From: Oligosphaera ethanolica
GTDB taxonomy: Bacteria; Verrucomicrobiota; Lentisphaeria; Oligosphaerales; Oligosphaeraceae
Direction: 5' to 3'
NCBI RefSeq assembly: GCF_030814695.1
Contig: NZ_JAUSVL010000001.1
Coordinates: 558,001-622,000 of the forward strand
Length of the DNA: 64,000 nucleotides
Part shown: one piece after another, positions 1,432-62,905 of the stretch
Position numbering within the stretch: position 1 is the stretch's first letter
Layout: each line of letters opens with the position of its first letter
The notes under the pieces: generated by a model
What the model was told of the DNA's origin: nothing
Database searches by the model: none
Seen by the model: the letters and a program-made list of their open reading frames with translations, nothing else
Program-made: the position numbers and the translations under genes

Positions 1432-1618
1432 CAGATCGGCCAAGTTCGGCCCGAAGGGCCGGACCATGCGTAACCCCGGGTGAGGCGCCCGGAGGGCGAC
1501 GCAACCCGGGGTATGACAACAACATAGAGTTGCGCCCGGAGGGCGCCACATTGGCTAGGCACGTCCCTTCCCACCGCGCCGGAGAGAGGCATGCCTAGTA
1601 TCCAGTAGCAATCACAGA
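1432..1618 (+). repeat. Dispersed hairpin element, family 1 (degenerate copy)
   Basis: It carries the hairpins GGCCCGAAGGGCC, then ACCCCGGGT paired with ACCCGGGGT around GGCGCCCGGAGGGCG, then GCGCCCGGAGGGCGC. This is the core of the 4135-4502 element. Its right end is a decayed form of the terminal repeat seen at 4480-4502. The left half of the element is absent and replaced by the 9-bp array. Confidence 0.85.
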
Positions 1619-1634
1619 CCAATAACGTGACGAC

Positions 1635-3934: not shown

Positions 3935-4134
3935 CGCCACGCCGCAACCCAACCCAGCGGCAAGTGTCCTCTGCCCCCCAAAGGCATCTCCTGTCTTCTC
4001 TGAGTCTCGGAGCAACACCCTTTTTGCGCCCTCCCAGCGGATTCTCTTTCGTCTTCCTTGGCAATGGCCCACCGCCCCCACGCGACGCGCTGAACCGCTG
4101 TCAAGTCTTCTTACCAATGCAGCGTTATCCGGCG

Positions 4135-4502
4135 GTAATCAGTCAGTGATTGATAACCAAAACTGTGGTGCCTCTACGAGGCACTGTCTGTTGACAGGCT
4201 GCGTCCCCAGGCTAAAGCCTGGGGTTAAGCATGGTTATGCGCCTACGGCGCAAATACATGGATATTGAATGATGGTTGTTTTTGGCCCAGATCGGACAAG
4301 GCAAGTCGTCAGATCGGCCAAGTTCGGCCCGGAGGGCCGCACCATGCATAGCCCCGGGTGAGGCGCCCGGAGGGCGCCGCAACCCGGGGTGTGACAGCAA
4401 CTTGGAATTGCGCCCGGAGGGCGCCACATTGGCGAGGCACGCGCGTCTCACGCGCCAGCCAGAGGCATGCCGTGCATCCGTTACCAATCACTGACCGATT
4501 AC
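4135..4502. mobile_element. 368-bp non-autonomous transposable element (MITE-like), family 1 full copy
   Basis: The left end at 4135-4157 and the right end at 4480-4502 are inverted repeats matching at 21 of 23 positions (outermost bases GTAATC). The element is flanked by a perfect 8-bp direct repeat ATCCGGCG at 4127-4134 and 4503-4510, as left by transposition. It has no transposase gene. Internally it is a chain of hairpins: GTGCCTCTACGAGGCAC, CCCAGGCTAAAGCCTGGG, GCGCCTACGGCGC, GGCCCGGAGGGCC, a CCCCGGGT/ACCCGGGGT stem and GCGCCCGGAGGGCGC. Close relatives lie at 33520-33882 and, truncated, at 1432, 29158 and 45757. Bases 3935-4126 and 4511-4636 show nothing else. Confidence 0.9.
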
Positions 4503-4636
4503 ATCCGGCGCGGTAACAGCTGGCATATTGGCGCGGCAATGGCAAATTCATGTATCGCCAAGCGGCCTTGGCCGCAATACTCCTATCTCAGCCACATTAC
4601 TCCGCTCTGCCACCCGCCATGTGAGGACTCCTTGCC

Positions 4637-29157: not shown

Positions 29158-29350
29158 GATAGCCAAATTCGGCCCGAAGGGCCGCACCATGCATAACCCT
29201 GGGTGAGGCGCCCGGAGGGCGCCGCAACCCAGGGTATAACAGCAACCAAGAATAGCGCCCGGAGGGCGCCACATTGGCCTGGCACGTCGCGTCCCACCGC
29301 GCCAGCCAGAGGCATGTCGCGCATCCAGTATCAATAGCTGACCGATTTCC
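29158..29350 (+). repeat. Dispersed hairpin element, family 1 (truncated copy)
   Basis: It has the hairpins GGCCCGAAGGGCC, ACCCTGGGT pairing with ACCCAGGGT around GGCGCCCGGAGGGCGCC, and GCGCCCGGAGGGCGC. The outer stem differs from the 4135 copy by a compensatory pair change. The right end is decayed (TATCAATAGCTGACCGATTT). The left end is replaced by the 9-bp array. Confidence 0.85.
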
Positions 29351-33292: not shown

Positions 33293-33528
33293 GTAATGGG
33301 TCAGTGTACACCCCGGCGCTTCGCTGGGACAATTTGCAGGAAACCCACGGCCCGCCGCCGCCCAGCCATTCGACCTTGATTTCCGCCGACCTTTGCGGCA
33401 GCGTGTTTCATAGGAGTAACCACCCCGTGGGGAAAACACCGGGGACAATTTGCAGGAAACCCACGGCCCGCCGCCGCCCAGCCATTGCACATAGGTAGCT
33501 AACCAGGCAGCGGATTTCATAGGAGTCA
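33293..33528 (+). repeat. Dispersed element, family 3, in two partial copies
   Basis: The first copy begins GTAATGGGTCAGTG, close to the MITE end, and continues with CCCCGGCGCTTCGCTGGG. The block GGGACAATTTGCAGGAAACC followed by CCACGGCCCGCCGCCGCCCA occurs near 33328 and again near 33432. The block from 33487 to 33528 matches the far end of the inverted copy at 40010-40205. Bases 33145-33292 show nothing else. Confidence 0.8.
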
Positions 33529-33882
33529 TTGATAACCAAAACTGTGGTGCCTCTACGAGGCACTGCCTGTTGGCAGGCTACGTCCCCAGGCTAAAGCCTG
33601 GGGTTAAGCATGGTTAAGCGCCTACGGCGCAAAAACATGGATATTGAATGATGGTGGTTTTGGGCCCGAACCTGACCAAGCAAGTCGTCAGATCGGCCAA
33701 GTTCGGCCCGGAGGGCCGTACCATGCATAGCCCCGGATGAGGCGCCCGGAGGGCGCCGCAACCCGGGGTATGATAGCACGTTAGAATTGCGCCCGGAGGG
33801 CGCCACATTGGCGAGGCACGCCGCGTCCCACGCGCCAGCCAGAGGCATGCCGTGCATCTGTTATCAATGGCTAACCGATTAC
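33520..33882 (+). mobile_element. Family 1 element, near-full copy of the 4135-4502 MITE
   Basis: It is co-linear with 4146-4502 over its whole length, including all six hairpins. The right terminal repeat is at 33860-33882. The left end lacks the outermost bases and is fused to a family 3 sequence, so the 8-bp target duplication cannot be recovered. The comparison suggests nested insertion or recombination between elements. Confidence 0.88.
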
Positions 33883-40009: not shown

Positions 40010-40205
40010 CGGCTGGCATCAATCACTCCTGTGAAACCCGCTGCCTGGTTAGCCTCCCATATGTATGGTTCACCACCACCCCAAAAACGTTCATTTTTTG
40101 GGCAAAGGTCGGCGGAAATCAAGGTCGGATGGCTGGGCGGCGGCGGGCCGTGGGTTTGCTGCAAATTGTCCCAGCGAAGCGCCGGGGTGTACACTGACCG
40201 ATTAC
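40010..40205 (-). repeat. Dispersed element, family 3 (inverted copy)
   Basis: Read on the minus strand it begins GTAATCGGTCAGTG at 40205, the same end as the MITE. It then runs through CCCCGGCGCTTCGCTGGG and the GC-rich block to GCTAACCAGGCAGCGG. It is the inverted relative of 33293-33528. No target duplication is visible. Confidence 0.8.
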
Positions 40206-45701: not shown

Positions 45702-45871
45702 ACGATCCGTCCGATCAGACCGATCAGCTGTCTCTTGCCTTATTTCGCGGACCGATCAGCCAGATTCGGCCCAGAGGGCCGCACCATGCATAACCCTGGG
45801 TGAGGTGCCCGAAGGGCGCCGCAACCCAGGGTGGAAGAAACATAAAAGGCCAGCGCCCGGAGGGCGCCACA
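45702..45871 (+). repeat. Short 9-bp array plus truncated family 1 hairpin element
   Basis: Three 9-bp units (45702-45728) precede a truncated family 1 hairpin string (45757-45871) with stems ACCCTGGGT/ACCCAGGGT and GCGCCCGGAGGGCGC. The GGTGCCC to GGGCGCC inner stem keeps a G-T pair. Another small array remnant with the linker CGCGATAAAAAGAC lies near 45950. Nothing else is seen in 45562-45991. Confidence 0.8.
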
Positions 45872-45991
45872 TGAACACAAGGTCAGAGCAACCAACACCG
45901 GACTGCTGTAACTTTGAGTGCTGAACACGCGACCAAAGACCGATCAGCAATACGATCCGTCCGCGATAAAAAGACCGTCATTGCGCATTGC

Positions 45992-62714: not shown

Positions 62715-62905
62715 CCAGTTTCCCTCGCCGCGAAGCGGCAGCAGCGCTGAAAGCGCGAAACATACCAGCCCAGGGCAAGCAGCGCTGAAAGCGCGCGCCG
62801 CCCTGGGTAGCGCGCCCATTATGCCCGTGTTCCTCGGCCCATTCGGCCCCAGTCGGCGCAGCTGACTGGAGCCGAATGGGCAATGGAACCCATTGATTGC
62901 TGCGG
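62715..62905 (+). repeat. Dispersed hairpin element, family 2 (copy 3)
   Basis: CCCAGGGC at 62769-62776 pairs with GCCCTGGG at 62800-62807 around an AGCGCTGAAAGCGC inner stem. A long stem (CATTCGGCCCCAGTC against its complement) follows. The end CAATGGAACCCATTGATTGC matches 39655-39848. Bases 62906-63131 hold only a GTGCGGGCGGGACGCCCGCAC hairpin and no gene. Confidence 0.8.

What the first reader, a model, noticed from the sequence alone, without database searches (positions are those of the whole stretch)
4127..4510. Intact non-autonomous transposon with 23-bp inverted ends and a perfect 8-bp target duplication
The ends at 4135-4157 and 4480-4502 match in inversion at 21 of 23 positions, and ATCCGGCG flanks both sides exactly. 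This is direct evidence for cut-and-paste insertion of a 368-bp element with no gene. An 8-bp duplication fits families such as IS66, IS1595 or ISL3, but no transposase with these ends is in the window. The parent element should exist elsewhere in the genome.
Basis: seen in the sequence. Interest (0 to 1): 0.7.

Follow-up and report, generated by a model that had tools for sequence, protein, structure and literature searches.

The report
IS66-driven hairpin-rich mini-transposon family
The 368-base element is a real gene-less jumping DNA piece, one of dozens of scattered copies, probably moved by an IS66-type transposase that is missing from this genome but was found, still carrying near-identical ends, in a related Lentisphaerae bacterium.

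Summary
It is not a singleton. The genome (a Lentisphaeria-type bacterium) holds at least 41 related copies and 122 end sequences, against none for a reversed control. Many end pairs carry 8-9 bp duplications (8 of 74 in one contiguous region; about 0.1 expected). A congener lacks the element at the orthologous site. At a second locus the two species differ by one clean 299-bp insertion with its own 8-bp duplication. The parent type was identified: a 2,566-bp element in a same-family genome (ADurb.Bin082) with near-identical ends, an 8-bp duplication, an IS66 transposase and a DUF6788 protein. Its right end shares further subterminal sequence with some MITEs here. No such transposase exists in the window's own genome, so here the family is orphaned. 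Unexpected: the elements are mosaics of strongly conserved hairpins, and a second, roughly 110-bp cassette sits only inside these inverted ends or in tandem with itself (64 of 64 sites). Verdict: a new, unusually elaborate family of IS66-type MITEs. The class is known; the mosaic and the TIR-seated cassette are the interesting parts.

The parts
4127..4134 (.). left 8-bp target-site duplication ATCCGGCG
   Evidence: identical to 4503-4510; element absent at the orthologous site of congener G002
4135..4502 (+). 368-bp non-autonomous IS66-type element (module M1), no gene
   Evidence: >=41 genomic copies at 84-94% identity; no credible ORF
4135..4157 (+). left 23-bp terminal inverted repeat GTAATCAGTCAGTGATTGATAAC
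   Evidence: family consensus GTAATCGGTCAGTGATTGATAAC differs by 2-3 bases from the ends of the autonomous IS66 element L108:1326-3891
4168..4184 (.). hairpin h1 GTGCCTCTACGAGGCAC
4205..4224 (.). hairpin h2 CCCCAGGCTAAAGCCTGGGG
   Evidence: h2-h3 segment 95-98% identical in other genera
4239..4251 (.). hairpin h3 GCGCCTACGGCGC
4325..4339 (.). hairpin h4 CGGCCCGGAGGGCCG
4352..4389 (.). nested hairpin h5 CCCCGGG..GGCGCCC GGA GGGCGCC..CCCGGGG
   Evidence: one compensatory pair change (G-C to T-A in 10 of 31 copies)
4410..4424 (.). hairpin h6 GCGCCCGGAGGGCGC
4480..4502 (-). right 23-bp terminal inverted repeat
4503..4510 (.). right 8-bp target-site duplication ATCCGGCG
33524..33882 (+). second copy of the 368-bp module in the window, right TIR at 33860-33882, left TIR interrupted by two tandem M4 cassettes (about 33293-33523)
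   Evidence: 92% identical; cassettes
1432..1626 (+). right-half fragment of the same module
   Evidence: 86% identical
29162..29347 (+). right-half fragment of the same module
   Evidence: 88% identical
45754..45872 (+). fragment of the same module
   Evidence: 83% identical

Best explanation
A MITE (miniature inverted-repeat transposable element) of the IS66 family. An IS66 transposase of the subgroup represented by L108 (IS66-type transposase plus DUF6788 protein, ends GTAATCGGTCA..ATTGATAA) recognised the 23-bp ends in trans and inserted the 368-bp gene-less element at ATCCGGCG, duplicating 8 bp. The family spread to dozens of sites before or while its source transposase was lost from this lineage. 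SHOWN: ends, TSDs, copy family, orthologous sites without the element, an autonomous IS66 element with near-identical ends in a relative, and absence of its transposase here. INFERRED: that this transposase type did the work, and that it acted by cut-and-paste. Inside, the element is a mosaic of short GC-rich hairpins that recur in other elements with the same ends. Their strong conservation suggests a role of their own (transcript protection, protein binding or insertion target), which is not shown.
For: Ends and TSD exact. >=41 copies; 122 end sequences vs 0 control. TSD excess 8/74 vs 0.125, and 33 TSD-bounded elements among 147 pairs in a second sample with 0 in the control. Empty allele: G002 lacks the element at the orthologous site, flank score 28 vs shuffled -18 +/- 8.6, maximum 9 of 500. 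Polymorphic insertion: own GTTTATTCG[368]GTTTATTCG vs G002 GTTTATTTG[299-bp MITE]TTTATTCG[368]GTTTATTTG. Parent: L108:1326-3891, 2,566 bp, 8/8 TSD TTTTTCGC, its two ends 22/23 alike and 2-3 bases from the family consensus here, PF03050 E=8e-24 and NF033517 transpos_IS66 above cut-off. A relative of that transposase in G012 (49% id) is flanked by GTAATGCCTCACCGATTGATATTG on both sides. Parent right end matches own-genome MITEs for 40 of 46 bases including subterminal sequence beyond the TIR; 0 matches in shuffled controls.
Against: The parent lies in another genus of the same family, with 2-3 differences in the TIR; no transposase with these ends was found in the window's genome or its two congeners. 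The internal 320 bp of the 368-bp module is not derived from the parent, so it is not a simple deletion derivative. Only one TIR-matched autonomous copy with a readable TSD was found, so an IS66 gene pair that came to lie between borrowed ends is not wholly excluded, although no second pair of IS66 ends is seen inside it.
Confidence: 0.88

Rival explanations
1. The MITEs are mobilised by another 8-bp-duplicating family (IS1595, ISL3, IS256 or a DDE_Tnp_1 group), and the similarity of ends to L108 is borrowed.
For: The genome carries 40 DDE_Tnp_1 matches; families other than IS66, DDE_Tnp_1 and IS110 were not searched by profile here.
Against: No own-genome transposase locus examined has these ends apart from one IS nested inside a composite MITE (L073); the IS66 element L108 has near-identical ends, the same TSD length and matching subterminal sequence.
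Confidence: 0.07
2. The hairpin modules are the true replicating units (REP/BIME-like, moved by another enzyme or kept by selection) and only became bounded by IS66 ends by capture.
For: Hairpins recur without nearby TIRs (h9: 15 of 33, h8: 15 of 31 further than 500 bp from a TIR-like end); hairpin stems are about 5 times less diverse than linkers (0.026 vs 0.142); h2-h3 is up to 98% identical between genera.
Against: It does not replace the IS66 explanation for the ends and TSDs; the full 368-bp unit moves as one block with TSDs at its outer ends. No REP tag or RAYT was tested.
Confidence: 0.3
3. The inverted ends and the duplication are a chance coincidence in a GC-rich intergenic region.
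For: None found.
Against: Copy number, controls, TSD excess and orthologous empty sites.
Confidence: 0.003

Closest known systems
IS66 family insertion sequences (for example ISPpa5a and ISPpa7 of Paracoccus, 8-bp TSD; PMC3281130)
   Same: 8-bp target duplication; ends beginning GTAA (as in the IS66 copies of this genome); IS66 transposase (PF03050 / NF033517) in the autonomous relative.
   Different: This element has no gene; the autonomous relative has a DUF6788 partner gene and no other listed ORF recognised as TnpA/TnpB; ends GTAATCGG... rather than the GTAAGCG... of the IS66 copies of the same genome.
Bacterial MITEs in general (for example MITEAba12, PMC6382973; Coxiella MITEs, PMC5896051)
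   Same: Short, no gene, TIRs, TSDs, several to many copies.
   Different: IS66 origin, which the literature searches here did not turn up as a described MITE class, and a combinatorial hairpin interior.
BIME/REP mosaics and REPINs (PMC2817692, PMC3116915, PMC3733652)
   Same: High-copy conserved hairpins arranged in mosaics.
   Different: Bounded by IS66-type TIRs and 8-bp TSDs; REP tags and a RAYT partner were not tested.
IS4321/IS5075 (IS1111 group) insertions in Tn21-type terminal inverted repeats (from own knowledge; background in PMC11187229)
   Same: A second element with a fixed insertion point inside the terminal repeat of a transposon, like the M4 cassette here.
   Different: M4 is about 110 bp, has no gene, forms tandem arrays, and its enzyme is unknown; the IS110 elements of this genome do not have its ends.

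Membership tests
MITE (non-autonomous DNA transposon) | short, no transposase gene | tested here: met
   368 bp; ORFs only spurious
MITE (non-autonomous DNA transposon) | terminal inverted repeats | tested here: met
   21/23
MITE (non-autonomous DNA transposon) | target-site duplication | tested here: met
   8/8; excess over control across the family
MITE (non-autonomous DNA transposon) | multiple copies and empty sites | tested here: met
IS66 family (by origin of ends) | ends match an element coding for an IS66 transposase | tested here: met
   L108:1326-3891 in G005, 2-3 differences in 23; shared subterminal sequence
IS66 family (by origin of ends) | 8-bp TSD and ends beginning GTAA | tested here: met
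   own-genome IS66 copies also start GTAA
IS66 family (by origin of ends) | source element in the same genome | tested here: not met
IS66 family (by origin of ends) | mobilised in trans by an IS66 transposase | not testable with these tools
   needs a mobility assay
REP/BIME | tagged hairpins with a RAYT (Y1) partner | not tested
   hairpins present, but tags and PF01797 were not searched

The most novel reading that the evidence does not exclude
The IS66-type inverted end serves as a docking site for a second gene-less mobile cassette (M4, about 110 bp, with forms up to about 400 bp), which always enters after position 12-14 of the TIR between AGT/AGC repeats and stacks in tandem. The elements thus grow by serial, site-specific acquisition of hairpin modules: a cassette-collecting system built on a MITE.
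Probability: 0.35. Interest if true: 0.65.

Novelty: new variant of a known kind. Interest (0 to 1): 0.45.

Why it matters
It gives a well-documented case of an IS66-derived MITE family, with its probable autonomous source, in an uncultured clade, and with species-level empty-site alleles. Conserved hairpins shared between separate elements, and a cassette seated only in the transposon's own ends, make a testable model for how bacterial mini-transposons become modular.

Tried and rejected
Searching the own genome for an IS66 or DDE_Tnp_1 transposase with these ends: none (20 of 40 DDE_Tnp_1 loci were read). L073 looked like a 2.8-kb autonomous element but is a multicopy IS (ends CTAGCCCATCTTTCTCACTT) nested in a composite MITE. 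IS110 as mobiliser of the M4 cassette: the IS110 copies lack M4 ends and sit in hairpin modules instead. RNA family search of the window: no match to the element, only Acido-Lenti-1 at 62743-62807. Covariation as proof of selected hairpin structure: weak, since the stems hardly vary and only one internal pair shows double changes.

Full report
OBSERVATION. The window element runs 4135-4502 (368 bp) between two exact copies of ATCCGGCG; its 23-bp ends agree at 21 positions. It lies between a URO-D-like gene (ending 3934) and a GH106-like gene (starting 4637). The ORFs inside are spurious.

COPY FAMILY. The window is bases 558001-622000 of a 5.73-Mb single contig. A search of that contig with the element gave 46 matches, at least 41 of them substantial, at 84-94% identity; only 40 of 292 candidates were scored, so this is a lower bound. 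The end pattern with up to 3 mismatches occurs 122 times against 0 for the reversed pattern. Several copies carry their own 8-9 bp duplications: TCTTCCAG, ACAATTTTG, CTGGCAGG, GTTTATTCG and ATGGACAC among others. In a 464-kb contiguous sample, 8 of 74 end pairs have a duplication against 0.125 with displaced flanks. In a second sample, mostly relatives, 33 elements with duplications were found and the control gave none. Sizes run from 124 to about 1,170 bp.

HOST AND RANGE. Matches with named records come from Lentisphaerae/Lentisphaeria MAGs (one labelled Verrucomicrobia), and the window carries an Acido-Lenti-1 RNA. The end pattern is in 7 of 41 genomes searched, in three genera of one family.

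EMPTY SITES. In the congener G002 the sequences on both sides are orthologous (88% and 92% identity) and no element lies between them. Joining the own flanks with one ATCCGGCG gives a colinear alignment across the site, with global score 28 against -18 +/- 8.6 for shuffles, maximum 9 of 500. The intergenic flank is diverged, so the site is recognisable rather than identical. A cleaner case is L037 against G002 L084: the two species share one 368-bp element, and G002 has an additional 299-bp element inserted in its duplication, with the 8-bp repeat TTTATTYG. Two other insertions are shared (L018/L266 and L032/L272, 97-98% identity). Insertions therefore occurred both before and after the split.

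THE SOURCE. It codes for a 591-aa protein matching DDE_Tnp_IS66 over nearly the full profile and NF033517 above its cut-off, and for a 140-aa DUF6788 protein. A homologue in G012 (49%) is flanked by perfect repeats GTAATGCCTCACCGATTGATATTG (the contig ends there, so its TSD cannot be read), and a more distant one next to L108 by GTAATGCGTCAGTGAAGCTG without a clear TSD. The ends thus co-vary with this transposase subgroup. The right end of L108 also matches MITEs of the window's genome beyond the TIR (GTAATCGGTCAGCCATTGATAATTGAGCCATAGAGCAAC..., 40 of 46 bases; none in shuffled controls). No homologue of this transposase exists in the own genome or its two congeners; among 29 family genomes only G005 and G012 have one. 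The own-genome IS66 copies have different ends. The family here is orphaned or depends on an unrecognised helper.

INTERIOR. The 368-bp module contains six hairpins (window 4168-4184, 4205-4224, 4239-4251, 4325-4339, 4352-4389, 4410-4424). Its folding energy is far below shuffles (z -7.3 as DNA, -7.2 as RNA). In 31 aligned copies the stems have a diversity of 0.026 and the loops 0.035, against 0.142 for linkers and 0.151 for the TIRs. The conservation is of sequence, not just of pairing; only one internal pair shows repeated double changes (G-C to T-A in 10 copies). A 50-bp segment with two hairpins is up to 98% identical in other genera. The same hairpins recur in other combinations in other elements with these ends, and also away from any TIR.

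A SECOND MODULE IN THE ENDS. About 20 of the roughly 40 copies inspected have one end interrupted by a unit of about 110 bp (M4..ACACCCCGG..ACAATTTGCAGGAAACCCACGG..GCGGCAGCGTGTTTCATAGG). Of 64 sampled M4 units, 44 follow the first 12 bases of the TIR, 20 follow another M4, and none lies elsewhere. Its right-end pattern occurs 168 times in the genome. At one orthologous pair, G002 has an uninterrupted TIR (GTAATCAATCAGCGATTGATAACC) and the own genome has GTAATTGGTTAG - about 400 bp of M4-type sequence - AGCGATTGATAACC. This fits site-specific insertion between AGT/AGC repeats. The sample was partly chosen through copies of the element, but the 26 units in the unbiased 464-kb stretch are also all within 500 bp of a TIR-like end. 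No enzyme was found; the mechanism is inference.

LITERATURE. Searches for IS66 with MITE terms, for Lentisphaerae repeats, and for TIR-targeting elements gave no description of an IS66-derived MITE family of this kind. The library lacks most subscription papers, so this is weak evidence of novelty.

VERDICT. The finding is real. It belongs to a known class (MITE), with IS66 as the source family at high confidence. The mosaic of conserved hairpins and the cassette inside the ends lift it above routine.

Noticed in passing
window 33293-33523 and about 40030-40205; L154:16974-17440: M4 cassette (about 110 bp) found only inside IS66-type TIRs or in tandem with itself, five in a row in L154; 64 of 64 sampled sites.
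   Followed up: partly
L296, L297, L298, L301 (positions 350-355 and 1994); uninterrupted copy in the L143/L144 element (genome 641082-642177): Near-identical IS110 copies (379 aa) sit at the apex of the same hairpin, GGCCGCCCCTT^CAGGGCTC, of these repeats; both junctions seen in four copies, the right one in six. This suits bridge-RNA/seekRNA-guided targeting of a repeat hairpin.
   Followed up: partly
L108:3268-3690; L059:2852-3157: A small DUF6788 gene accompanies the IS66 transposase in the relative; a 50%-identical DUF6788 gene in the own genome lies near a DDE_Tnp_1 transposase, so it may be an accessory used by several IS families.
   Followed up: no
window 62743-62807 (-): Acido-Lenti-1 RNA (RF01687), 40.3 bits.
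   Followed up: no
L116:9357-9759; L291: TSD-bounded 403-bp element whose interior is a tandem array of GTCGATTGCT units; similar CAGTCGAT arrays lie in the G002 intergenic region orthologous to the window element.
   Followed up: no
L073:624-3449: A 629-aa DDE transposase IS nested in a composite MITE that still has its outer 8-bp TSD TCGCTCAC.
   Followed up: partly
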